Part shown: one piece after another, positions 3,832-63,064 of the stretch
Position numbering within the stretch: position 1 is the first letter of the stretch
Layout of the letters: the number at the start of each line of letters is the position of its first letter
NCBI GenBank assembly: GCA_012862575.1
Contig: BLSF01000023.1
Span: 248,001-312,000, forward strand
Length of the DNA: 64,000 nt
From: Parietichytrium sp. I65-24A
Taxonomy: Eukaryota > Sar > Bigyra > Thraustochytrida > Thraustochytriidae
Direction of reading: 5' to 3'
Translations under genes and position numbers: made by a program
Notes under the pieces: model-generated
Told to the model about the DNA's origin: nothing
The model's database searches: none
Seen by the model: only the letters and a program-made list of their open reading frames with translations

Positions 3832-5374
3832 TCTCGCAGCCAAATCCCTTCCTGTACTGTGCTTTCCTTGTGCTTAGCTGTGCTGTGCCTCCGAACAAAC
3901 CTTGACCGACCGAGAACGCTCACTCGGATAGATTACTGAATTCACGCTCCTTCCTAAGCTGGATGCTAAGACTGCGCAGAATGGACTGTTACGCCAAGTG
4001 TGGGGTCCTCGCGGATGTTGTCTTAGCGGCGGATAGACTGGAGAGATAGAAGTGGAGCTACCTCGCTTGCATAGGCGTGGAGTTAGGGGAATGGGGAGTA
4101 TCCACTTAGGAGTTACGAGATTCACGCGGGGATGTCTGGGTGGGAGGAGCCATAGGTGGTGTGGTAAGGGAAGATAGCACTGGGTGGATTTCATCAGGAT
4201 TGGCTTTATTTAGAGTGAGATGTTTTGCACCTCGTTCTCGGGGTGTATGATCGTCATGACAAAGAACTGTTCTTTATAATGTTCGATACGCAAATATAGA
4301 CAGATTTATATTTCATACGCTGGGACGTTTTTTTCCCCAGCTAAGGTTTACTCTTACCTGCTTCCAGAACGAACATATAAAATCGACGTTTCGCGTCACT
4401 AAGGCGTACACGTGACGACTATTGGCTGTCTATTTGTGAGATCGGTGCGTCAACAACGTCCCAGTAGTTTTCCACCCGCCGTGACGGTTGTTCTAACGGT
4501 TGGCTACTGGTTGGCGTAATACGAAAACCGCACAAACCGAAAACCAATTCGAAAATGTTATAGCGTTGATAGGTGGTCCTACGTTCCGAACTTTGACGGG
4601 TAGAAAAAATATCCACAACCCTGCAAAAATGACGCGGAAAAACCAACACGATTCCCAGATCCCAATTACCACGTCACCTAGCGAACAACACATATTCCTT
4701 GGATAAATGCCGGCCCTAACTCCCACCACTCCTCACTTACCCCGCTAGCAACTCACAATAGGTGCAAGTCCCACACTCCTACTGTAACCAAACCTAACAC
4801 TTATATATCTGTATCTACACTCGTACCGGCACACATAAACTCAAACTATAATACCCATCGGACCCTCTTAGCACCGCCAATCTTAGCGTCCCCAATTAGA
4901 AGTGCGTCTTACCCCAAAGTCCATCACTCTCTTAGCTAACACCTTGAAGACGTTGGTAGGGAGAGATAGACCATGCAGATATGTTAGCCACACTACCCAA
5001 ACGCTAGCGCGAGGACTTTGAAAAAGCGGGGCTAGACGGAATGTGTAGGAGGTGGTACACAGGCGAATAGATCGATGTCGATGGAGAACAGAGACAACAT
5101 GAACAACAAGCATAACAAACAGGGATAGATAGATAGATGGATAGGTAGATAACAGCAAGAGAGAGCAGAGCGGCAGACAAGTGGATAGAGACAGAGAGAG
5201 AGACAGAGACAGAGACAGAGAGCGTAGACCCAATAGGTTTAGTTTGGCAGAGCACGAACGCGCAGTGGAAGGAAAGAAGGAAGGAAGGGAGAAGGTTTCA
5301 TTGTGGATATCTGTGCGAGACGTGGAGGTTGAAGTGCCAGCAGTGAGAGAGAGAGAGTGAGAGAGAGAAGAGAG
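3832..5374. other. 1.5-kb spacer with GATA and GA repeats before CCT4
   Basis: No convincing coding frame. The left part is low in G+C. From about 5120 the plus strand becomes a purine tract with GATA, GACAGA and GA repeats that reaches the CCT4 start codon at 5375 and so forms its 5' UTR or promoter. Confidence 0.6.
5125..5374 (+). repeat. Purine-rich GATA/GACAGA/GA tract in the CCT4 leader
   Basis: GATA units near 5127-5147, alternating GA/GACAGA at about 5189-5222, GGAA units at 5270-5290 and GA runs at 5346-5374, directly abutting the ATG. Several other genes here (carrier, cyclin, lectin protein) also have GA on the sense strand just upstream. Confidence 0.8.
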
Positions 5375-7142
5375 ATGGCGCGAGCAGAGACATACAAGCG
5401 GCGGGAGAAGGAGGCGGACGTGCGCGAGTCGAATATCGTGGCCGCGAAAGCAGTGGCAGATGCCGTGCGGACTAGTCTGGGCCCAAGGGGCATGGACAAG
5501 ATGATCCAGGGAGACGACGGCGAGGTGATCATCACGAACGACGGAGCGACGATTCTGGAGAAGATGAAGTGCCTGCACCCTGCTGCCAAGATGATGCAGG
5601 AGCTGTCAAAGTCGCAGGATATTGAGGCCGGGGACGGAACGACCTCCGTGGTGGTGCTTGCAGGAGCAATCTTGAACTCGACCCACCAGCTGCTGGCAAA
5701 AGGAATCCACCCTACCTTGATTGCAGAGGCTTTCCTCGAAGCGGCTCAGGAGGGAGAGCGCATCCTCGAGTCCGTTGCGCGTCCGGTCGCACTGTCCGAT
5801 CGCGAGTCTCTCATCAAGGCTGCGGTCACTTCGCTTAGCTCCAAGGTCGTTAGCGCAGATTCAGAGATCCTTGCGCCTATTGCTGTGGACGCAACTCTCC
5901 GTGTGATCGACCCAGAGACTGCTTCCAACGTTGACATCAACGAGAATATTCGTGTCGTCCAGCAGATGGGAGGCACTGTAGAGGACACCGAGCTCATCGA
6001 AGGCCTGGTGTTCAAGAAGAAGGGTGTGTCTGTCTCTGGAGCGCCAAGCCGTGTTGAAAATGCAAAAATCGGACTGATCCAGTTTGTAAGTTGCCCATTT
6101 GTTTGAGATGCTCGCAACAGAAAAATTTGCGCTTGTGTGTATTAACAGTCAACCTTGATGATCTACTTTACGACAACAGTGCCTTTCCGCGCCAAAGACT
6201 GACATGGAGAACAACGTTGTTGTGTCCGAGTACGCGGCAATGGACCGCATTCTTCGCGAGGAGAGGAAGTACATCTTGAAGCTATGCAAAAAGATCAAGG
6301 ACAGCGGATGCAATGTACTGCTTGTTCAAAAGTCCATTCTCCGTGATGCCGTGAACGACCTTTCTCTGCACTTCCTGGCCAAGATGAACATCATGGTCAT
6401 CACCGATGTGGAGAGGTCGGATGTAGAATTTATCAGTAGGACCGTTGGCTGCTTGCCTGTTGCCCACGTAGACAGCTTTGTGGCAGATAAGCTTGGAAGC
6501 GCTAAGCTTGTAGAGGAGGTGTCCATGGGATCTGGACGCGTCGTCAAAGTCACCGGCTGCGAAGCCAAGCAGAACACTGTTACCGTCCTGGTTCGCGGAG
6601 CGAACAATCTCATTGTTGGCGAGGCAGAGCGGTCTCTGCACGACGCCTTCTGTGTTATTCGTTGCTTGGTCAAGAAGAAGTTCCTTATTGTCGGTGGAGG
6701 CGCCCCCGAGGCGGAGCTTGCTCTCAGACTCAGCAAGTTTGCCAAGACCCTTGCAGGCCAGAAGCAGTTCTGTGTTAAGGCGTATGCAGATGCTCTGGAG
6801 GTGATTCCTTACACCCTCGCAGAGAACGCAGGACTCAACCCTATTGAAGTAGTCACCGAACTTCGTCGTCAACACGCTCTCGGAAACACCACTATGGGAA
6901 TCAATGTCAAAACTGGGCAGTAAGTTCAAAATGTGTGGCCTTTTGTTTGAACATGTGTGACTTGACTAACGTCTTTGGGACTTTCAACCTTGAACTTTTG
7001 TCCTTTCCTGCGCAACAGAATTACCGACCTTGCTGAAGAGAATGTATTCCAGCCCCTCCTAGTTTCTTCCAGTTCCCTAGCCCTCGCTAGCGAGACCACT
7101 CGCCTCGTTCTCAAGATCGATGATCTTGTGGGTGCTATTTAG
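5375..7142 (+). CDS. CCT4: T-complex protein 1 subunit delta (CCT4), three exons
   Basis: Delta subunit of the cytosolic chaperonin CCT/TRiC, which folds actin, tubulin and other proteins using ATP. Exons are 5375-6085, 6180-6919 and 7019-7142, giving 524 residues against about 540 in animals. Both introns (94 and 99 bp) begin GTAAGT and end CAG. Their removal restores the conserved stretches [13 protein letters not shown] and KTG-QITDL found in known CCT4. Visible group II chaperonin motifs are NDGATIL, the nucleotide-binding GDGTTS (G86-S91) and GGGAPE in the third domain. The strongly conserved central region ([28 protein letters not shown]) identifies the delta subunit. The start follows a GA tract and gives [10 protein letters not shown]. 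Confidence 0.95.
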
Positions 7143-7939: not shown

Positions 7940-10900
7940 ATGGGTCTCATACGGCGATGGAGCATAGTGTTGATACTCGCGCTGGGGTCGCTTCTTTGGT
8001 CTGGTCAGGTGCGGTGTGTCGCGAGCGTAGAGGCGAACAAGCAGTCGCAGCCTGTGGGTGTGAACTCTGAGCAAGATGTGAAGGCGTACACGCTGTTCAA
8101 CGAAGGTGTCGTGCTGATGGAGCGTGGACAACGAGAAGAAGCCTACTCTGTATTTGCCCTGGCGTTGGGGATGAAACCGGATCTGCACGAAGCAAAGCAC
8201 AATATGGGGAATCTGCTTCGGGCGATGGGAAAAATCGACCAAGCTAAAGAAACTCTGCACGAGGTTCTCGCCGAGGCGCAACACGCCAATAAGAAAGCGC
8301 TTGAAGCAGGGATCCTCAATAACTTGGGCCTCATCGCAATTATTGAGGGAACAGCGAGCTCAAGTGACTCCAAAGCGCAAGAAAGCCAGAATGCAAACAA
8401 CGCGCAATTGCTTCGTAACTCGGCCATCCCAACACTTCTAAAAGCCATGCAGGTTGACCCGATGCTACACGACGCGCCTTACAACCTGGGCAATGCGTAT
8501 GCGGCCCTTGGTGAGATTGGAAACGCAATTGCAGCATATAAGAAATCGCTTCACATTTTCCCCAAGAATCCGCCTTGTCTTTTGAATCTCGGGAACCAGC
8601 ACATGAGATTGGGACTCTACGCGGAATCGGAGCGATATTACACATTGGCAGTCGAGGCAGCATCAGAAAAACCGAATAGAGATGGACACATGCTCCTCGG
8701 AGCCCTCAACAATCTCGGACAGACGCTTCGAGAGGGCGGCAACCTCATCGGTGCTGTTGAGCGGCACGAGCAAGCTCTTCTAGAAGACAAAACATCTGTC
8801 GTAGCCATGGTGCAAGGACTTGTGGCGAGAAGGTCGCTTTGCTATTGGCGGGAATGGGAAAAGAGGCACTTCTCGTTATGGAGGACGCTCAGTGACCCCG
8901 CCTTTGGAAGGCTTGGCGATCTTACGCCATATGACTCGCTTTTGATGCCGCCGTCACTATTTATGGATGCACGATTTATTTCCTTGGCCCAAGTCAGCAG
9001 ATACGCAATGGCCATGCTCAGCCAAGACAACTCGCGGCTCGCTCTCTTACCAAACCACTCCATCCCACCTATTTTAAATCTCGGCTACCTTTCATACGAC
9101 ATGCGAGACCACCCAATGGGCTATCTTATGCGAGGCCTCTATGAATTGCACGACCGTTCCAAGTTCAGAGTTTCGATTTTCATGTACGGTCCAAACGATG
9201 ACCCGGCAATCCGGCAATCCCTCATACAAGCATCTGACGAGTTTGTTGACCTGTACAATGTCCCTTCGGACGCAGCAGTAGCCAGAATCAAGGAGTCAAA
9301 GATCGACATTTTGATCGACTTGATGGCACACACAAGAGGAACTCGGTTGGATTTAGCAGCAAGCTTTCCTGCGCGCACATACGTGAATTATCTCGGATAC
9401 CCTGGGACCAGTGGCCTCTCCGCGAGCGGAGCCTTTATAATCGTTGATGCCAAGGTTCTTCCTCCGGAAACTATTTGGAAACGAGTCGAGGTGACGGAAT
9501 CGGTCGTTTTGCTGCCAGAATCATACCAGGCAAACGACTGCAACCTAACAGAATCATTTTGCACCCCGGCGGCAGGATTGCACCGATATTGGGCGTGCAG
9601 AGCTCGAACAGAAATTTTTCAAGACGGACTATTTGCGGACCTCCCTACGACGCACCAACCGTTTCGATTCGCAAATCTCAATATGATTACCAAGATGGAG
9701 CCTCGTGGTTTACAATCCTGGTGCAGAATCCTAACACGAGTCCCGAAGAGCGTCCTCTACCTGCTTTCGCCAAAGTCGGCTTCACCCGGCTTCGCCAACG
9801 TCACCGAAAACATCTTGGCCCAAGTGGCCGCTCACGGAGTTCATCCTAGTCGAATTATTTTTCTTCCTCGCACCAAACGCGGGATGCACCTCGCAAGACT
9901 CCCCGGCGTCGACCTTTTTTTGGACTCGCTTGGCTACGGAGCTCATTCGACTGCGACCGAGGTATTGTGGGCCGGAGTTCCGGTTCTCACGCTGCGTGGA
10001 ATGACGTTTGCAAGTCGAGTTGGCGCGAGTCTTCTTTCTGCACTAGATCTATCCGAGTTAATTGTGGATGGCGTAAAAGAGTACGAAGACCTTGCTGTAG
10101 AGCTTGCTCAGCGCCCGAGCATAATGCACTCCATTCGTGTGAAGCTCGGGCAAGCGCTTTTGCAAAAGTCGCTCTTCAACACGGAACGCATTGTTCGGCA
10201 CCTGGAGAATGGTCTGTTGACAACGCAGCATCGCTGGGCTCGAGAAGCCGAAGCGATTCTGATCTCTCCTTTGGAGGAAGCAGATCTTGCGAGTTACCAC
10301 TCTAAACTCCGCAACTTTCTTGAGACCGGATTGTATTATCATCGCAATGGGGCTAAGGCGGAAGCAGCGAATGTATATTACAGAGTTCTGGCTGCAATTC
10401 CGCAAGGGGGTGGTTCGGAGTGGGAAATTCTTCGCGGTGATTTGTTCCACTTAATAGGGCTTCTGGAAGACGACCTTGCGTTGGTGGAGCAGGCTCTGCA
10501 GCTCCTTCCCAAGTCAGCCCTTGTCGCAGCAAATCTCGGGCATTTGTTTCTTGCAAAAAAGGAGGTTTCAAGAGGCTGGGGCCTTTTCCTTCGCTCGCTT
10601 GACCTAGCTTTGGAGGACCGACAGGTTGACAAGTTTGTCTCTTCGTTTCAGACGCTGGAACACGTCTTGTTGACTAGTTTTCCGGGGCCGGATATGAGGT
10701 TGGAGAGGCGAGCGAGAGCGCTGGAGATGCTGGAAAAATTCGAAAGTTTGATGCAATCTCATGGCACTAGTCTTCTTGCCGGGGCGGAAACATCGCTGGA
10801 GCGATCATGGAACGCAATTGAGGAGATTTTTGTCTCAAATGATCTTCGGTTTGCGATTCTCCTCTCGGAGAGGGTTCTTGCTCAGACGTCAATTTCCCCC

Positions 10901-12205
10901 AAAGTGCGCTTTCGTCGAAAGTATCGGCTCGGCGCATTCTACACGAGCCTAGGGGACCCCGCAAACGCCCTGAAAGTCCATCTACAGACCGTTGCCGAAG
11001 AAAACAAAGAGGATTTTCAGCCACAAGTGCTCGCTAATATTCGGGTTGGGGTGCCAAGTGCCGGCACAGATTCTCAGGGCAAGAGAATTGTATTCTATTG
11101 CAACGAGTATGGTCAAACATGGTGGCCCAACTGGGGCCCTTCCAGCCCGAATAGGAACGGGGCTGGAGGTTCTGAAGAGGCAGTGATATTCTTGTCTAAA
11201 GAGCTTGTAAAGTTAGGCTACTCTGTGGAAGTCTACGCGGACCCATTGCCGAACGAATACGGAGTGACTGCAGCGTCTGGGGGAGTGGTGTGGTTTCCGC
11301 TTCATGCGTTTGATGCAAGCGCATCTGATGTGGACCTCTTTATCGCATGGAGGTATCACATCTCATTGGCGCTTGGGGTGAATGCGCGTCAGAAAATGTT
11401 GTGGCTCCAGGACATGGTGACAGGTATTAGCGACCAAATCTTGGCGCTCGTGAATACGAAGTACTTGGATGTGGTGCTAGGTCTCTCCAAGTTTCACATA
11501 TTTTCGATGCCATCTCAGGTTCGAGCGTCATCGGCGATTCTTCCGAATGGGATTCAGGAAGAATACCTCGTTGCGGGGCCGAACTCCAACACGGAATTTT
11601 TATATTTGAGCGCGCCAAATAGAGGCTTGGAGCAACTATTGGCGATATGGCCACAGATCCATGCCGCTCTCCCGGGCTCGTCACTGCGGATATACTACGG
11701 TTTCTCCAACTCTTTCCTCAAATGGGGCGCCGGCGCAATTCCAAACTTTGACGACTGGCTCGCCGGCATGAAACAGCGAATCGCCGAGTTGGAGAGATCG
11801 GCAAATGTAAGATACGTAGGTTTAGTTGACCACGTAGAGCTTGCAGCTGCGCTCGCCAGGTCGGGCTTCACTCTGTATCCGACGTCTTTCCCAGAGACAG
11901 GCTGTGTTGCGCTCATGAAAGCGATGGCGATGGGAAGTATACCGATCACTAGCCGATACGAAAACTCGACACTGCCAGAGCTCACAGCAAATTGGGATCT
12001 CGGGCCGCCAGTGCGCCCAGGGAGAAAGAGCATTGCGGAAGACCCCCAGTTCCTTCAGGAGTACGCTGAAAGTGTAATCGCAGCGGTGAAGCACCATAGC
12101 GAGCAGGATCTCCTGAATCATCGACGGGGCATGGTAGCTTGGGCCAAGCGAACCTTGCTCTGGTCAGCTCGTGCAAGGCAGCTCGAGGCAATCGCATTTC
12201 CTTAA
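7940..12205 (+). CDS. Secretory TPR protein with OGT-like (GT41) and GT4-like glycosyltransferase domains
   Basis: An uninterrupted 1421-residue protein. Residues 1-30 form a signal peptide or anchor (Arg-rich start, then WSIVLILALGSLLW). TPRs fill about 45-290. Residues 373-755 match O-GlcNAc transferase/SPINDLY: SYDMRDHP with H391, the near-invariant LGYPGTSG, K585 in NLNMITKMEP (aligning with the OGT catalytic-site lysine), and H669 in GAHSTATEVLWAG. A second helical TPR-like region (790-1030) leads to a GT4-like domain (1048-1380) with NGAGGSEEAV near 1073 and FPETGCVALMKAMAMG near 1317. In that GT4 motif the first Glu (E1319) is present but the second acidic residue of E-x7-E is Lys (K1327). 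Known: most OGT/SPY enzymes are nucleocytoplasmic. Inferred: this one glycosylates proteins in the ER or Golgi, perhaps adding two sugars in sequence. The donor sugars cannot be read from the sequence. Confidence 0.88.
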   Translation: MGLIRRWSIVLILALGSLLWSGQVRCVASVEANKQSQPVGVNSEQDVKAYTLFNEGVVLMERGQREEAYSVFALALGMKPDLHEAKHNMGNLLRAMGKIDQAKETLHEVLAEAQHANKKALEAGILNNLGLIAIIEGTASSSDSKAQESQNANNAQLLRNSAIPTLLKAMQVDPMLHDAPYNLGNAYAALGEIGNAIAAYKKSLHIFPKNPPCLLNLGNQHMRLGLYAESERYYTLAVEAASEKPNRDGHMLLGALNNLGQTLREGGNLIGAVERHEQALLEDKTSVVAMVQGLVARRSLCYWREWEKRHFSLWRTLSDPAFGRLGDLTPYDSLLMPPSLFMDARFISLAQVSRYAMAMLSQDNSRLALLPNHSIPPILNLGYLSYDMRDHPMGYLMRGLYELHDRSKFRVSIFMYGPNDDPAIRQSLIQASDEFVDLYNVPSDAAVARIKESKIDILIDLMAHTRGTRLDLAASFPARTYVNYLGYPGTSGLSASGAFIIVDAKVLPPETIWKRVEVTESVVLLPESYQANDCNLTESFCTPAAGLHRYWACRARTEIFQDGLFADLPTTHQPFRFANLNMITKMEPRGLQSWCRILTRVPKSVLYLLSPKSASPGFANVTENILAQVAAHGVHPSRIIFLPRTKRGMHLARLPGVDLFLDSLGYGAHSTATEVLWAGVPVLTLRGMTFASRVGASLLSALDLSELIVDGVKEYEDLAVELAQRPSIMHSIRVKLGQALLQKSLFNTERIVRHLENGLLTTQHRWAREAEAILISPLEEADLASYHSKLRNFLETGLYYHRNGAKAEAANVYYRVLAAIPQGGGSEWEILRGDLFHLIGLLEDDLALVEQALQLLPKSALVAANLGHLFLAKKEVSRGWGLFLRSLDLALEDRQVDKFVSSFQTLEHVLLTSFPGPDMRLERRARALEMLEKFESLMQSHGTSLLAGAETSLERSWNAIEEIFVSNDLRFAILLSERVLAQTSISPKVRFRRKYRLGAFYTSLGDPANALKVHLQTVAEENKEDFQPQVLANIRVGVPSAGTDSQGKRIVFYCNEYGQTWWPNWGPSSPNRNGAGGSEEAVIFLSKELVKLGYSVEVYADPLPNEYGVTAASGGVVWFPLHAFDASASDVDLFIAWRYHISLALGVNARQKMLWLQDMVTGISDQILALVNTKYLDVVLGLSKFHIFSMPSQVRASSAILPNGIQEEYLVAGPNSNTEFLYLSAPNRGLEQLLAIWPQIHAALPGSSLRIYYGFSNSFLKWGAGAIPNFDDWLAGMKQRIAELERSANVRYVGLVDHVELAAALARSGFTLYPTSFPETGCVALMKAMAMGSIPITSRYENSTLPELTANWDLGPPVRPGRKSIAEDPQFLQEYAESVIAAVKHHSEQDLLNHRRGMVAWAKRTLLWSARARQLEAIAFP

Positions 12206-36236: not shown

Positions 36237-39188
36237 ATGGCAGTTCCCCGAGCCTATGTAAGACTGGGCGAAGATGGAGGTGGCTCTGTCCGCGCTGGCG
36301 GTGCGACCCTGGCTTTACGGGTGCGGGTTCTCGTGAGGACGGACGGAGGAATGCAGGTTCCAGTACCTTTAAATGCGGCAAGGAGGGTTCGCGTTGCCCC
36401 CACGACTCTATCAACGGCACCTTTGGCTCCGAAATCTAAACCAAAGTCTGGCGATGCTCTTGCGAAAACCAGCCCTTCAATACGCGCAAACAACGCGGCG
36501 GAAGACAGCTTGGCCAAGAGTATCAAAGGACCCGACAGTTTAGATGAAAGCACCTCCAGCTCGGCGAAGGAAAATTCGGTCGCCCCTGCAACAAGAAATG
36601 CAGCAGAAGATGTTGCCAAACCCGTAGTAAGCCATGAGCGTGAATCGAATCAGATCCAGTCACAGCCGCCTGTACGAAACAACGCCACAGATCCCTCCGT
36701 CAACATTTCAAGTAATATGCCTGCAGAATTGACACCACATGTTTTGCCGGCGACTAAAGACATGTCAAAACCGGGGCCGCCTCTCTCACCGCGCGCAAGC
36801 GGCCCCACACCATCAAGTCCTTCCCCGGGTAGTGGGATGCCCAGGTCTCTACCGGGATCTAGAATACGTGGAGAAAACTTGGGGAAATTACCTGGTTCAG
36901 TTCCCGGCTCGCTTCCCGTGACCTCTCCGAAAAGCCGGAATTCCATAAGCAATGTTTGGGGGGTAGAATTCCGGTCCAGCGACGGGCTGAATCGCGTAAC
37001 ATTCAACAACGAAGATGGCAGCTTTGCTGCGTCCACATGGCCAAATAGTACGGTGTGCAGCGTCAACCTTAGGTTTGTAGCTGAGCATGAACAATTTGCG
37101 GACTGTTTTGTGCATGGGTGGCAATCGGCTAGTTTGAGCTGTGCAAGAACTGTTGGTGTGGACAAGAGGCAGCCACGATCTTTGGTGAGCCGATTTGTGC
37201 CCGCCCTCGCTCAAGCGGATGCTGGGAGTCCGTTCGCTGGTCGCACGGAAGATGGCGTGGAATCTCACGGGTTTGTTTTGTTCGAGACTGCTTTGGGTGA
37301 GTTTGTCTTGATCGGAGCTCTCCGAGGAGATAGAGCTTGCACGGCATTCTGGATGTTTAAGGAGGAAGAGCACACTGTCATTGAATGTGCTGTAGATTTT
37401 GGCCCAGAGGGTGTACCGGCAAAGAAGTGCGCAGAGTCTATTGTCTATCTCGTCGGAACGAGCGCCAATCAGGTGCTCGAGGAGTACACCCAACTAGTGC
37501 AGCAACAGGCGGCTGCGGACGCTGTTCAAATTGAGAAGGACACAGCCTTGCTCAAAGCGTCACCTCTCTATGCTTTGAAACGCCCCCCTGTCGGATGGGA
37601 TTCGTGGCACGAATTTAACACCAAGGTCACGGCAAGCAGACTACTGAAAGGAGTTGCCGAAGTGAATGCCGACCCCGCGCTGGCACGAACCGTTGACGTC
37701 ATTCTCTTGGGGGATGGCTACCAGCGGAATGTTGGCGACTGGCTTGAAACCCGGACCTCTTTCGGGGAAAAGTCACTCGATGCTTTGGCTCAAAAGGTGA
37801 CAGTTGCAGGCTTCACTCCAGGGATCTGGCTGGCACCTTTCCTCGCTTCCAAGACGTCTACTCTGTTTAGAACGAGACCAAACTGGTTTTTGAGGCGAAG
37901 AGACAAGCCCAACAAATACGTGGTGGGCCACTTCAACTCTGATTGGCGAAGAGGAGGCTTGCGCTCGATGCGTATGTACATCCTTGACCTTAGTAACCCG
38001 GAGGTTCTCGTGCACTTAGAGTCAACCTTTCGTACGCTCGCCAAGCATTGGAAATATTTCAAGATTGACTACCTGCAAGCTGGGATTCAGGATGGTTTAA
38101 GATTAAGGGCAAGTACAGAGACTCGCGCGGAGTCCTTCATCGCAGGTCTCCGCGCGATCCGCAGAGGAATTGGTTCCGAGTCTTTTCTCGTTGGATGTCG
38201 CGCTCCAATCTTCCCGTCAGCTGCGTCTCGTTGCTTCGACGCCATGAGAGTGAGTTGCGACACCGCGATGCACTGGAAACCCTCGTGGTTTTCCAATTTT
38301 TTGGCGGCTGATAGCCCATCACCGTGTGCTTCGAAAGCCTTGTGGGGGGACATTACCCGCTCATTTATGTCGAGTCACCTTTGGGCGTTCAACGACCCTA
38401 ACTGCCTCATCGTTCGCAAGGCTCACAATGGCTTGTGCCACGATCAAGTTTTATTTCAGACGACTGTTCTTGCTCTCACTGGCGGGCTTGCTATTCTCTC
38501 TGATAATCTGAGCAGATTGGAACCTGAGCGACTGCAAGTAGCACTGAGTGTACTGCCGCCCTCGCATCTGCACGGTCGCGCTGAAGGCGACTTTATGCGT
38601 ACGGACTCTCCGCCCACGTTCTTTTCAACGAGTGACTGGATGGACCATGACGAGAACGTCGTTGTCGCGTTGTTGAACTGGACCGACGAGGATGAGACCC
38701 TCACCCTACCGCGAGACGCATTCGATTTCTGGGCTCATAAAGCCTATTCGAAAGGCGATCAAGTTGTCGTTCACAAATGCTCGGCCACTGCTTTACAATG
38801 CTGCAGGTATGGGAGTGCTTTGGTGGGATCAACATTTCATCTCTTGGCTCTTGCTGATGGAAGAATACGAGAGACTGTAGCAAATGGCGAGATTCAGATT
38901 TCTGGGGATTTGGAGTCGCTGGCTCTGAGTAGAGGTTATATTGTTATCGCTCAAAGCATGGTGGATGAAAACGGTGGGCCGATCCTCAGCAACTTGGAGC
39001 TGTGCACCACACTTCGAGCACAAGATGGGCTACTCTGGGCTGACGTTCAAATTTTGCATCCTGGAGAGTGGAGCATTACCTTTAAGGAGTCTGAGATACC
39101 CTATGACCCGAGATCAGAGGATGAGGTTAGGTTGTTAGATTGCTTTTCAATTCCCGCCGAAGATGAGACAAGCTCTGAATGTTCATAA
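36237..39188 (+). CDS. GH36-like (alpha-galactosidase clan) glycoside hydrolase with long disordered N-terminus
   Basis: A 983-residue single-exon protein. Residues 1-240 are Ser/Pro/Lys/Ala-rich and disordered. A beta-rich domain (about 245-440) precedes a TIM barrel starting at RPPVGWDSWHEF. The usual clan GH-D landmarks follow: ILLGDGYQRNVGDW, GFTPGIWLAPFL, the probable nucleophile D611 in FKIDYLQAG, and the probable acid/base D675 in VSCDTAMHW. HLWAFNDPNCLIVRK and TGGLAILSDNLSRL are also characteristic of GH36. A C-terminal beta domain completes the protein. Known: GH36 includes alpha-galactosidases, raffinose or stachyose synthases and alpha-N-acetylgalactosaminidases. The substrate here is not determinable. 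Oddly, no signal peptide or TM is visible, so it is either cytosolic or an N-terminal exon has been missed. AATAAA lies immediately after the stop. Confidence 0.85.
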   Translation: MAVPRAYVRLGEDGGGSVRAGGATLALRVRVLVRTDGGMQVPVPLNAARRVRVAPTTLSTAPLAPKSKPKSGDALAKTSPSIRANNAAEDSLAKSIKGPDSLDESTSSSAKENSVAPATRNAAEDVAKPVVSHERESNQIQSQPPVRNNATDPSVNISSNMPAELTPHVLPATKDMSKPGPPLSPRASGPTPSSPSPGSGMPRSLPGSRIRGENLGKLPGSVPGSLPVTSPKSRNSISNVWGVEFRSSDGLNRVTFNNEDGSFAASTWPNSTVCSVNLRFVAEHEQFADCFVHGWQSASLSCARTVGVDKRQPRSLVSRFVPALAQADAGSPFAGRTEDGVESHGFVLFETALGEFVLIGALRGDRACTAFWMFKEEEHTVIECAVDFGPEGVPAKKCAESIVYLVGTSANQVLEEYTQLVQQQAAADAVQIEKDTALLKASPLYALKRPPVGWDSWHEFNTKVTASRLLKGVAEVNADPALARTVDVILLGDGYQRNVGDWLETRTSFGEKSLDALAQKVTVAGFTPGIWLAPFLASKTSTLFRTRPNWFLRRRDKPNKYVVGHFNSDWRRGGLRSMRMYILDLSNPEVLVHLESTFRTLAKHWKYFKIDYLQAGIQDGLRLRASTETRAESFIAGLRAIRRGIGSESFLVGCRAPIFPSAASRCFDAMRVSCDTAMHWKPSWFSNFLAADSPSPCASKALWGDITRSFMSSHLWAFNDPNCLIVRKAHNGLCHDQVLFQTTVLALTGGLAILSDNLSRLEPERLQVALSVLPPSHLHGRAEGDFMRTDSPPTFFSTSDWMDHDENVVVALLNWTDEDETLTLPRDAFDFWAHKAYSKGDQVVVHKCSATALQCCRYGSALVGSTFHLLALADGRIRETVANGEIQISGDLESLALSRGYIVIAQSMVDENGGPILSNLELCTTLRAQDGLLWADVQILHPGEWSITFKESEIPYDPRSEDEVRLLDCFSIPAEDETSSECS

Positions 39189-59445: not shown

Positions 59446-60424
59446 CTACTCTAGCCTACCACCACAATTCTATCTTTTGGAAACTCGACCAACCTTCAAC
59501 TTCATCACTCACTCACTCACTCACCAACCTAACCTCATCCGCCCCATCTGGAACCAACCTCACGAGTTCCCCATCGCCACGGTCTTGACAGACCTCACTA
59601 CCTCAACTACCTCCAACTTTCCATCCGAGTCACTTTATACCCAACTCCACCGCTTCCAAAGATTTCCAAAGCCAGCCAGCGCCTATTGCCAGTGTCGCCA
59701 TTGCCATATCGCCATCGCCATCACCCTCCTCTTCTCCAAGTTTCCATTTTCCAACTTGCAATCTTTGCAATCTTTTTGCAATCTCTGCAATCTTTGCAAT
59801 CATTCTTTCCTCTGTTTTACGTTGTCGTAATTTACGTTGTTGTAATTGGTCGCTTCCCCCGGCCCCTCGGTCTACTCTCCACCTACCATCTACAATAGCA
59901 CCACCACCCTCACTGATGGTGTGAATGACTGTGCATGCCACATGCCAGGCGCTTGCTAGTGTGGTCGCATAGGACTCCCTCTGTATCCTGGGTAGGAAGA
60001 CATGAATGTTCGCTATTGATTTACTAATTGCGGCTACGATAGCCACCGTCCTGTGCGTGAGCCATGTTTGCCAGTAAGCAAGTACTACCGTCACGGTAGA
60101 GAGTTCGCTAGACCTTTCTTACCAGGAAGATTTTGCAAACAAATTTCCTCACATTCCTCACTGTCAGTTCACAGTTCTTATTGCCTTCTACTAAACCGAG
60201 TAGCATTGAAAGAGAGAGAGAGAGAAAGATCAGAAGTTTTGATCGGAAGAGTGTCCCACTGTGAGTACACTAATACATACGTATACGGTGTCCGCGGAAG
60301 TGTACTCGAGTAACGGTCACTCCCTTCTAGGTAGCATACTGAGAGTGATAGCTGCTGCTGCTGTTTCCGGAAAGGTTCGTTGGTGGGCAGGATCGGGAGG
60401 CTCAAAGAGTGGAGAGGAAGAAGA
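59446..60424. other. Spacer between the TPR and lectin genes
   Basis: It holds CACT units (59506-59523), a TTGCAATCT array (59756-59804), a GA run (60209-60229) and GTACTCGAGTAAC (60302-60314). No gene is seen. Confidence 0.55.
59756..59804. repeat. TTGCAATCT array
   Basis: Five near-perfect 9-bp units with a slip (TTTTTGCAATCT) in the middle. Confidence 0.9.
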
Positions 60425-63064
60425 ATGCGGCGCAAAGTGGTAGAATGCGTGGTATTGGCGGTGGCAGTGGTGATCGCAATGGGTATGATGCCCGTGGCGC
60501 AGGGAATTGTGGGAGATGAGCGCACGAAGCTTATCGTTGACAAGTGGAAGCAAGTTACTTGCGAGAGAGCGAACTTTGGCGGTAGCATTGTGAGCGCCGG
60601 GGTCAAGGCGCCGTTGTACTGGAGCGAGGCGTGCAGTGCGTTTCAATTCCCCACCGAACCGTCGATTGTCATCGTGTCGTTTGGAGAGGACACGCCGCAA
60701 TGCGACCCGTACAGATGGCTCCTCACCTACTATGTGACCCATCGCCACGGAACTCTGGCGTTTGTGGTCGTGAATTGGGCGGGGAATCACACATGGGCGC
60801 TGAATGCTGGGTATTCCTCGTCTATTGCGCTTCCGCCAGTGTGTATGATTCCGGGTCTTGCTGGAAAGGAAATCAAGGACGTTTTGAGCAAAGCAGAAAC
60901 ACGCACCGGTACGCTTCACAATGGCGACACCGAAGAAATCATGTACGATGGGAAAAATGCGTTGATCACCGATCTCTACGTGGACGGTAAAGCATACGCA
61001 GATGGCGCCGTGCTGCACGACGACTACAAGCGAATCGCGCTAAGGGCCACTCGGTCAGGCGAGTATCCGCTAATCCGCGTTGGTGTCTCGGATGGGTACG
61101 GGACTGGGCGCTCCGGATGGTGGTGCACCGAAGACGCTCCCCCCACGAACTGGAGAACGGATGCATATGTCGCAGAGATGGACCACAAAACGAAGTGGAG
61201 TGAAGTGTCTGAATTGATAATGGATCACCACCATATCATTGATGACAGAAAGCCTATCAGGCACACCTTGTATAAGGGAAGACTCATGTGGGTGGCCAAC
61301 TCGAACGCCACGGAGATACATTGCTTCGGCGTCCGCAATCTGGGAGTTATTCGCAGGTATGGTTTTGAATATTTTGTGAATTCGACGCCATTGACGTACC
61401 AGGACTCCAAGGCAGCTTGCGAGAGCCGAGGGGCGAGACTTGCTTCAATTCACAGTGTCGCCGAGAATGAGTTGATTGGGCTCTTAATGCCACGCGTTGC
61501 GGCCGAGGAATTCTCGAGTGCTTTTGTTGGGCTCAATGATATCGACCTGGAACGGCACTTTGTATGGTCTGATGGTAGCACACTGGACTACCTAAACTGG
61601 GACGATGAGCACCCTTTGTACAAAGGCGAAAAATACGATTGCACCGCAATCAAGTCCTTTATCAAAGACGGTCAAGTTGAACGCATCAAGTGGCACAATG
61701 TGGACTGCTCGATAAAGAGAGCGAGCGTGTGCAAGAAATTCGTTGGTGGCGAAGGCAATGACCTTGGCGTCTATGCTGATGACAAGTGCTACATGTATCT
61801 GGACCACGATGTCACTTTAACATCCTTTGGCGCTGCGCCACGTGAGTTGGTGGGCACAAACAAGAGTATGTGCATGTTCTCTGGCCAGCCTTTATCATGC
61901 TGCTCCACGGCCTTTGTGAACGAAAGGATACTTCCGATGCACGAGAAGATGATCGAAAAGGTCACGTCGCCTGCGTGCAAGAGTGTTCTTGAGCAACTAA
62001 ACTGTTTTCAGTGCTATGCGAGCCAAGGCCGCTTCATGGAATTCAATGTCTTGCATGGCTTGAGGGCCAACATGTGCGATGATACTTGCTCGACTCTTCA
62101 TTTTGCTTGTCAGAATGATCCCGTTTTTGCTGGGCTTGACTCGTTGGCTCTCTGCAATAGGTACGTGGACATGTTTGCAGAAACATCAGGACTTGCAGGA
62201 AAGTTTTCTGTAAATATTAAGGAGGCGGACGAAGACGACTGCTTCCGCGTTGATGGCCAACCTCCGTTTTTGACAGAGCTCACCTTCAATTCGCACACCC
62301 ACAGCTTTGTGCTCCGATTTGATGAGCAGGTGAAGGTTGTCGGCGGCGAACTTCAGCTATGGGTCGGTGGCGACATTCGTCCTGGCATATTCACTGAGCC
62401 GGTTTACACCTTGAGCCTTTCGAACGCGACGCGAAGCAAATCGGTGTACGAAGGCGACACTCTCACCTTGGAGACGACACCTTCCGAGTGCGTGCCTCCT
62501 GGCCTGTACAAGATCTACCTGCCAAGTCTTTCTATTGTTGACATGGCAGGGAATGCATTCATGGGTAGTAACAGTTTGCTCGACACCTTGGAGATGGAGT
62601 TTCCGCACGGAATCAACTGCGAAAAGTCTGGCTCCAAAGTTGGTAAGATCTTTGGTTGGCTGTTTTTCTCCCTCTTCGTGGTTGGCCTGGCAGGGTTTGT
62701 TGTGGTACAGGCCAGGAAGCGCGGTTTTGGACGTGGTGCAGCGGACTCCTCGACAGTCTCTAGGTTTTTCGATTGTATCGGAGACTCGCTTAGTACTGCA
62801 GCTGCAAGCGCGGGTCGCGGTATCTCGAGCTTCACGTCCAGTACGAGAGCACGCGCGTCAGGCGCATTTGCTCCGTCTCTTCGAGGAAACAGCGACGACA
62901 ACGAGTTTGATGAGTCTCGGTATGTACCGCTAGACGCGAATGCAGCCTCCCGCCGCGATCGCGATGCCAATGACGACGACGACGAGAATGAGCAGACCAT
63001 TGCCGAAGGCTACCAAGCACCTTCGCAATCCGGGAGTGGGCGATCCGCGTTGCTCGAGGTTTAA
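60425..63064 (+). CDS. Type I membrane protein with a C-type lectin domain
   Basis: An 879-residue receptor-like protein. The first ATG (60425) gives a signal peptide (MRRKVVECVVLAVAVVIAMG). A Cys-containing ectodomain of unknown type spans about 30-300 and has a FRIALRATRSGEYP-like beta region and WWCTEDAPP. A C-type lectin-like domain covers about 311-440: YQDSKAACESRGARLASIHS, SSAFVGLND, FVWSDGSTLDYLNWDDEHP, KWHNVDCSIKRASVCKKF. The EPN/QPD sugar motif is not obvious; the WND site reads WHNVDC. A Cys-rich segment (about 455-600; CSCCSTAF-like, NCFQCYAS, CDDTCSTLHFACQ) recalls folate-receptor-like domains. Then come a beta domain (about 620-720, PPFLTELTFNSHTHSFVLRF), a TM (about 740-762, FGWLFFSLFVVGLAGFVVV) and a 115-residue cytosolic tail ending in acidic runs. 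Inferred: surface recognition or adhesion. Confidence 0.88.
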   Translation: MRRKVVECVVLAVAVVIAMGMMPVAQGIVGDERTKLIVDKWKQVTCERANFGGSIVSAGVKAPLYWSEACSAFQFPTEPSIVIVSFGEDTPQCDPYRWLLTYYVTHRHGTLAFVVVNWAGNHTWALNAGYSSSIALPPVCMIPGLAGKEIKDVLSKAETRTGTLHNGDTEEIMYDGKNALITDLYVDGKAYADGAVLHDDYKRIALRATRSGEYPLIRVGVSDGYGTGRSGWWCTEDAPPTNWRTDAYVAEMDHKTKWSEVSELIMDHHHIIDDRKPIRHTLYKGRLMWVANSNATEIHCFGVRNLGVIRRYGFEYFVNSTPLTYQDSKAACESRGARLASIHSVAENELIGLLMPRVAAEEFSSAFVGLNDIDLERHFVWSDGSTLDYLNWDDEHPLYKGEKYDCTAIKSFIKDGQVERIKWHNVDCSIKRASVCKKFVGGEGNDLGVYADDKCYMYLDHDVTLTSFGAAPRELVGTNKSMCMFSGQPLSCCSTAFVNERILPMHEKMIEKVTSPACKSVLEQLNCFQCYASQGRFMEFNVLHGLRANMCDDTCSTLHFACQNDPVFAGLDSLALCNRYVDMFAETSGLAGKFSVNIKEADEDDCFRVDGQPPFLTELTFNSHTHSFVLRFDEQVKVVGGELQLWVGGDIRPGIFTEPVYTLSLSNATRSKSVYEGDTLTLETTPSECVPPGLYKIYLPSLSIVDMAGNAFMGSNSLLDTLEMEFPHGINCEKSGSKVGKIFGWLFFSLFVVGLAGFVVVQARKRGFGRGAADSSTVSRFFDCIGDSLSTAAASAGRGISSFTSSTRARASGAFAPSLRGNSDDNEFDESRYVPLDANAASRRDRDANDDDDENEQTIAEGYQAPSQSGSGRSALLEV

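What the first reader, a model, noticed from the sequence alone, without database searches (positions are those of the whole stretch)
7940..12205. Secretory-pathway fusion of an OGT/SPINDLY enzyme with a GT4-type glycosyltransferase
The protein has a signal peptide, TPRs, a complete-looking GT41 domain (H391, LGYPGTSG, K585, H669), more TPR-like helices and a C-terminal GT4-like domain. OGT and SPY normally work in the nucleus and cytosol on UDP-GlcNAc or GDP-fucose. A luminal OGT joined to a second glycosyltransferase could add a disaccharide to secreted or cell-wall proteins in one step. I know of no characterised enzyme with this layout.
Basis: partly seen in the sequence, partly recalled or inferred. 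Interest (0 to 1): 0.85.

Follow-up and report, generated by a model that had tools for sequence, protein, structure and literature searches.

The report
Secretory two-enzyme sugar transferase of stramenopiles
This gene encodes one long protein that appears to enter the secretory pathway and carries two different sugar-transferring enzymes, one of them related to O-GlcNAc transferase; the same fusion turns up in thraustochytrids, water moulds and several groups of brown-coloured algae, and its pocket residues suggest that it adds a sugar other than GlcNAc.

Summary

It is not a one-off. 80 fetched proteins, this one included, have GT41 followed by this GT4. The 29 with an organism name are all stramenopiles. 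In the trees the fusions group together (75 of 75 for GT4, 74 of 75 for GT41), so one ancient fusion is likely. Hydrophobic N-termini are common among them (50 of 67, against 9 of 72 other GT41 hits).

The "luminal OGT" reading changes. The three published donor-selecting positions read OGT-like, OGT-like, SPINDLY-like (Leu, Arg, Tyr). I predict a UDP-sugar without a 2-N-acetyl group: neither UDP-GlcNAc nor GDP-fucose. A 2023 paper already notes stramenopile GT41s with mixed patterns, and secretome tables list GT41s, but I saw no account of the GT4 fusion. Building a two-sugar glycan on secreted proteins is plausible and untested.

The parts
7940..12205 (+). Whole gene (1,421 codons plus stop): TPR-GT41-linker-GT4 fusion protein
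   Evidence: One open frame; full-length relatives
7940..8026 (+). Signal-peptide-like segment, aa 1-29
   Evidence: Hydrophobic stretch from aa 9, candidate cleavage after aa 26, 28 or 29; hydropathy rule only
8069..8893 (+). TPR array, aa 44-318
   Evidence: Pfam TPR models; paired helices in the model; N88, N128, N182 and N258 kept in 39-41 of 41 sequences
9074..10219 (+). GT41 catalytic domain, aa 379-760
   Evidence: Pfam E=4e-57; XcOGT/OGT/SPY fold
9110..9112 (+). H391, equivalent of human OGT H558
   Evidence: 41 of 41; 73 of 75 with 2 gaps
9692..9694 (+). K585, equivalent of human OGT K842
   Evidence: 44 of 44; 74 of 75
9764..9766 (+). L609, base-recognition position (human OGT L866, SPY K689)
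   Evidence: Leu in 67 of 75 fusions
9896..9898 (+). R653, base-recognition position (human OGT R904, SPY A731)
   Evidence: Arg in 74 of 75 fusions
9935..9937 (+). Y666, sugar-pocket position (human OGT C917, SPY Y744)
   Evidence: Tyr in 75 of 75 fusions; alignment to OGT
9944..9946 (+). H669, equivalent of human OGT H920
   Evidence: 75 of 75
10220..11074 (+). Linking region aa 761-1045, weakly conserved, possibly TPR-like
   Evidence: Weak TPR_7 stretch; found in 13 of the 44 other fusions when searched alone; not modelled
11081..12202 (+). GT4-type domain, aa 1048-1421
   Evidence: Model pLDDT 94.3; GT4-type matches; Pfam below cut-off
11894..11920 (+). E1319-x7-K1327, variant of the GT4 EX7E motif
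   Evidence: E 77 of 77, K 74 and R 3 of 77 fusions

Best explanation
A stramenopile secretory-pathway protein glycosyltransferase with two catalytic modules. Shown by sequence and predicted structure: TPR array, GT41 domain with intact catalytic positions, GT4-type domain, one polypeptide, kept across stramenopiles. Inferred: the N-terminus takes it into the ER/Golgi lumen; the TPR groove holds a protein substrate, as in OGT; the GT41 domain puts a sugar from a UDP donor lacking a 2-N-acetyl group (for example UDP-Glc, -Gal or -Xyl) on Ser/Thr; and the GT4 domain adds a further sugar to that product. The last step is the least certain.
For: GT41 and GT4 folds. Catalytic positions conserved. 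Donor positions Leu/Arg/Tyr with His at H920 in 66 of 75 fusions, Arg 74 of 75, Tyr 75 of 75, read with PMC10027727 and PMC9715652; a brown-algal study also models a UDP-sugar site for some GT41s (PMC11468063 passages). Fusion order kept in 80 fetched proteins, single-clade trees. N-terminal hydrophobic stretch in 50 of 67 complete fusions against 9 of 72 other GT41 hits and 87 of 1,833 internal stretches. Conserved TPR asparagines.
Against: No enzyme, location or transcript data. 17 of 67 complete-looking fusions fail the N-terminus test at 2.2, Hondaea P0002 among them; a stricter rule gave 19 of 45. No ER-retention ending was seen and no second membrane segment in the query, so how it would stay in the Golgi is open. 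The GT4 Pfam scores are below cut-off, and the second Glu of EX7E is Lys or Arg in 77 of 77, which leaves the activity of that domain open. The Leu/Arg/Tyr/His code is not special to the fusions: 16 of 75 other GT41 hits have it. P0221 falls outside the GT41 clade.
Confidence: 0.5

Rival explanations
1. A luminal OGT or SPINDLY in the strict sense: the GT41 part adds GlcNAc or fucose to secreted proteins and the GT4 part extends it.
For: OGT-type base residues L609 and R653; good OGT and SPY fold matches; UDP-GlcNAc is a usual luminal donor (recalled).
Against: Tyr at the C917 position in 75 of 75 is reported to clash with GlcNAc; Arg at the A731 position and no Lys at the K689 position speak against GDP-fucose.
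Confidence: 0.2
2. Two transferases in one secretory protein that act on different acceptors or places; the fusion serves co-targeting, not a two-step reaction.
For: The linking region is weakly conserved, and in P0211-P0213 the same GT4 type is joined to TPRs and a GT2 model instead of GT41, so the GT4 has other partners.
Against: The GT41-GT4 order has been kept through the whole family.
Confidence: 0.2
3. The GT4-type domain is not catalytic and binds glycans or regulates.
For: Lys or Arg for the second Glu of EX7E in 77 of 77; Pfam below cut-off.
Against: E1319 77 of 77, G1076 and G1077 78 of 78, D1158 78 of 78; 71 of 76 aligned viral/prokaryote segments of stand-alone type share the Lys, so it is a subtype mark rather than decay; the fold is complete.
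Confidence: 0.12
4. A cytosolic enzyme whose hydrophobic N-terminus is not a working signal peptide.
For: OGT and SPY are described as nucleocytoplasmic (PMC10027727, PMC9715652 passages); the segment was judged by hydropathy only, and 9 of 72 controls pass too.
Against: Enrichment in the family; GT41 in predicted secretomes of oomycetes and thraustochytrids; the same genome has a separate OGT-like gene without such a segment (C45).
Confidence: 0.08

Closest known systems
Intermediate GT41 group of prokaryotes and stramenopiles (PMC10027727, 2023; section 7 read)
   Same: TPR-GT41 proteins of stramenopiles with mixed donor residues, neither OGT-like nor SPY-like
   Different: The passages seen mention no GT4 domain and no signal peptide; whether its stramenopile members are these fusions was not checked (its supplement was not available)
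Human/Drosophila O-GlcNAc transferase (OGT)
   Different: Tyr for C917; second transferase domain; signal-like N-terminus
Arabidopsis SPINDLY (SPY)
   Different: Leu for K689 and Arg for A731; His where SPY has T747; second transferase domain
XcOGT and other bacterial GT41 enzymes
   Different: No GT4 behind the GT41; three metagenome proteins with both domains (P0067, P0075, P0076) have the reverse order and a distant GT4
Phage and algal-virus GT4-type glycosyltransferases
   Same: Same GT4 subtype: Lys at the second EX7E position in 71 of 76 aligned segments; fold match to Heterosigma akashiwo virus 01 protein (TM 0.84) and an uncultured Caudovirales protein (0.81)
   Different: About 26-34% identity; not joined to GT41 in the 82 loci searched
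Two-domain luminal glycosyltransferases such as LARGE or EXT (recalled, not compared here)
   Same: Two transferase domains in one secretory protein
   Different: Other GT families; none recalled with GT41

Membership tests
GT41 (Pfam Glyco_transf_41) | Profile score over the curated cut-off | tested here: met
   194.1 bits against 25
GT41 (Pfam Glyco_transf_41) | Catalytic His and Lys (human OGT H558, K842) present | tested here: met
   H391 and K585; numbering from the chain offset and
O-GlcNAc transferase (OGT) | Leu/Arg/Cys at the three donor positions (L866, R904, C917) | tested here: not met
   Leu/Arg/Tyr
O-GlcNAc transferase (OGT) | Uses UDP-GlcNAc on Ser/Thr | not testable with these tools
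   Needs enzyme assays
SPINDLY O-fucosyltransferase | Lys/Ala/Tyr at the three donor positions (K689, A731, Y744) | tested here: not met
   Leu/Arg/Tyr
GT4 | Pfam GT4-type model (PF00534 or PF13692) over cut-off | tested here: not met
   22.1 against 26.4 and 17.3 against 27 bits
GT4 | GT-B fold of the GT4 type | tested here: met
GT4 | EX7E motif | tested here: not met
   E-x7-K; a variant shared with 71 of 76 viral/prokaryote segments. I therefore call it GT4-type, not a GT4 member
Secretory-pathway protein | Cleavable signal peptide | tested here: inconclusive
   Hydropathy rules positive for the query; no trained predictor and no localisation
Bifunctional (two-step) glycosyltransferase | Product of one domain is the acceptor of the other | not testable with these tools
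   Needs enzyme assays

The most novel reading that the evidence does not exclude
Stramenopiles inherited from an early ancestor a protein O-glycosylation route of their own in the secretory pathway: a luminal GT41 enzyme with a UDP-hexose or UDP-pentose donor starts it, and a GT4-type domain in the same polypeptide, of a type otherwise found here mainly in viruses, extends it.
Probability: 0.35. Interest if true: 0.85.

Novelty: new variant of a known kind. Interest (0 to 1): 0.62.

Why it matters
The GT41 enzymes best known in eukaryotes put single sugars on nuclear and cytosolic proteins. A conserved, apparently secretory GT41 joined to a second transferase would be a new way to start and extend glycans on secreted or wall proteins in a large eukaryotic group that holds seaweeds, bloom algae, thraustochytrids and oomycetes. 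The pocket residues give a donor prediction that a simple nucleotide-release assay can test.

Tried and rejected
Chance or mis-joined gene: rejected. 80 of 226 proteins examined (225 fetched plus the query) have GT41 before this GT4. The lists are capped (one search showed 120 of 376 hits; searches scored only the 7,990-7,996 candidates sharing most words), so 80 is a lower bound.

One-species oddity: rejected. 29 of the 80 carry an organism name, and all 29 are stramenopiles: Hondaea; oomycetes (Phytophthora, Nothophytophthora, Plasmopara, Pythium, Globisporangium, Lagenidium, Saprolegnia, Aphanomyces); pelagophytes (Chrysophaeum, Aureoumbra, Aureococcus, strain CCMP2097); Triparma; Scytosiphon, Discosporangium, Chrysoparadoxa. 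Lineages of eight were looked up; the rest are recalled. Guillardia theta, a cryptophyte (recalled), has TPR plus this GT4 in models without a GT41 match.

Whole fusion taken from bacteria: not supported. P0067, P0075 and P0076 have the reverse order and a distant GT4 on long branches.

Cellular prokaryote source of the GT4: one scan of 84,980 species confirmed 2 loci of 35 pattern matches; the viral scan confirmed 84 of 126, 80 kept. Patterns came from a eukaryote-rich alignment, so both are lower bounds.

Sequence searches of the GT4 part against PDB: phmmer gave nothing related; the profile's best glycosyltransferase was GlgA, E=3.5e-6. PHROGs: nothing for the query, phrog_2170 (glycosyltransferase) for P0121 at 3.1e-8. 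No Rfam match at gathering score and no tRNA in the window. No OGT or SPY chain stood in the 50 rows shown for the GT4 model; that list excludes no family.

Rows dropped: 13 of 80 fusions as N-terminally incomplete; 5 of 80 by length in each tree; viral/prokaryote rows 40 of 52 long enough. 38 of the 160 GT4-tree rows were in no group, and many lie inside the fusion clade. Trees are the quick kind, without bootstrap, with long branches flagged.

N-terminus rule: the first rule passed 19 of 45 (first 45 residues; internal control 8 of 1,192). I loosened it after seeing that, so its figures are indicative. In one search the paralogue C25 was tested from a wrong Met; from the right one it has a stretch of 3.18.

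Not done: a model of the linking region or whole protein (both jobs used); a tree with eukaryotic OGT and SPY sequences.
Full report
What is there. Window 7940-12205 (+) is one open reading frame of 1,421 codons with 13 further open codons before the ATG. The genome that holds it has 42.5 Mb in 172 contigs and no name. A neighbouring TCP-1 chaperonin gene lies in two separate ORFs that match profile positions 1-208 and 218-449, which looks like an intron. The nearest named relative of the protein is from the thraustochytrid Hondaea (42% identity over 97%), so a labyrinthulomycete is likely but not shown.

Catalytic positions. From the OGT alignments, with human numbering from a chain offset of 10, D387, H391, K585, L609, H650, R653, Y666 and H669 correspond to D554, H558, K842, L866, H901, R904, C917 and H920. 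In the first 45 sequences H391 is 41/41, K585 44/44, H650 and H669 45/45. In 75 fusions H391 is 73 with 2 gaps, K585 74, H650 75, H669 75.

Donor prediction. PMC10027727 (passages and section 7) names three residues that separate OGT (L866, R904, C917) from SPY (K689, A731, Y744), and says that some TPR-GTs of prokaryotes and stramenopiles form an intermediate group with mixed patterns. PMC9715652 (passages) argues that the Y744/C917 position sets pocket size; XcOGT has Y463, TtOGT Y419, and ApHMW1C, which uses UDP-glucose, F517. Here the code with H920 added is Leu/Arg/Tyr/His in 66 of 75 fusions; Arg 74, Tyr 75 of 75. Among 75 other GT41 hits 16 have that code, so it is an inherited GT41 state, not a mark of the fusion. 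I infer a UDP-sugar without a 2-N-acetyl group. PMC11468063 (passages) reports ten GT41 genes per brown-algal genome on average, none closely related to plant O-fucosyltransferase, and a site favouring a UDP-sugar in some selected sequences; which of its groups matches this family is unknown.

The family. Of 225 fetched proteins plus the query, 80 (query included) have GT41 before this GT4; 29 of them bear an organism name, all stramenopiles (eight lineages checked). In the GT4 tree (160 rows) the 75 fusions lie on one side of a branch (SH-aLRT 97) and the 40 viral/prokaryote rows on one side of another (99). In the GT41 tree (153 rows) 74 of 75 fusions form a clade (94), with the window genome's own C32 as sister (99); P0221 lies outside on a long branch. 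This fits one fusion early in stramenopiles.

Secretory signal. Of 67 fusions with a likely complete N-terminus, 50 have an uncharged 9-residue stretch of mean hydropathy 2.2 or more in the first 60 residues, against 9 of 72 other GT41 hits starting with Met and 87 of 1,833 internal stretches; at 2.5 it is 41 of 67, 3 of 72 and 13 of 1,833. A stricter first rule passed 19 of 45. GT41 is listed in predicted oomycete secretomes (PMC4316629, table passage) and in those of more than three thraustochytrid genomes (PMC6050695, one passage).

The GT4-type domain. G1076, G1077, S1078, E1079 and D1158 are 78 of 78, E1319 77 of 77, but the second EX7E position is Lys (74) or Arg (3); 71 of 76 viral/prokaryote segments also have Lys. 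One copy was found in the genome. Its best match among viral protein models is Heterosigma akashiwo virus 01 (TM 0.84 over the query), then an uncultured Caudovirales protein (0.81). Five phage records match by tblastn, three of them over 98% of the query at 28.7% identity. The direction of transfer is unknown.

Other GT41 genes of the genome. The search gave seven matches at four loci. C32 has a signal-like start, TPRs and GT41 with the same code, and no GT4 match. C25 has a signal-like start, a divergent GT41 and a C-terminal stretch without a Pfam match. C45 is OGT-like with many TPRs, with Tyr and Val at the H558 and H920 positions.

Literature. Seven searches showed no account of a GT41-GT4 fusion in the listings and passages seen. 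Three were capped lists (20 of 42, 15 of 81, 20 of 866), and the library holds open-licence papers only, so absence from print is not shown.

Verdict. A real, conserved GT41-GT4 layout with a probable secretory signal, apparently undescribed. By donor residues it is neither OGT nor SPY. The two-step mechanism is a hypothesis.

Noticed in passing
L009:1858-4812 (genome contig C45): The genome's OGT-like gene with many TPRs keeps the OGT donor residues (Leu, Arg, Cys) and the catalytic Lys but has Tyr and Val where human OGT has H558 and H920; it may be a pseudoenzyme.
   Followed up: partly
L003:634-2970 (genome contig C32): A second signal-peptide-like TPR-GT41 gene, with the same donor code as the fusion and no GT4 domain; sister to the fusions in the GT41 tree.
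   Followed up: partly
L010:2470-6438 (genome contig C25): A third signal-peptide-like gene: TPRs, a divergent GT41 (Phe at the Tyr position, Ser at the H920 position), more TPRs and a C-terminal stretch of about 300 residues without a Pfam match.
   Followed up: partly
P0211, P0212, P0213: Three metagenome proteins carry a GT2 model (PF00535) with TPRs and the same GT4-type domain, in place of GT41.
   Followed up: no
GT4-type domain, window 11081-12202: Closest fold match among viral proteins is from Heterosigma akashiwo virus 01, a virus named for a raphidophyte alga (host recalled); phage relatives are numerous in IMG/VR.
   Followed up: partly
window 5357-6923: TCP-1/cpn60 chaperonin gene in two ORFs, apparently with an intron between them.
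   Followed up: no
window 36237-39185 and 60380-63061: A 983-aa ORF with a melibiase match just over cut-off, and an 894-aa ORF with a C-type lectin domain.
   Followed up: no
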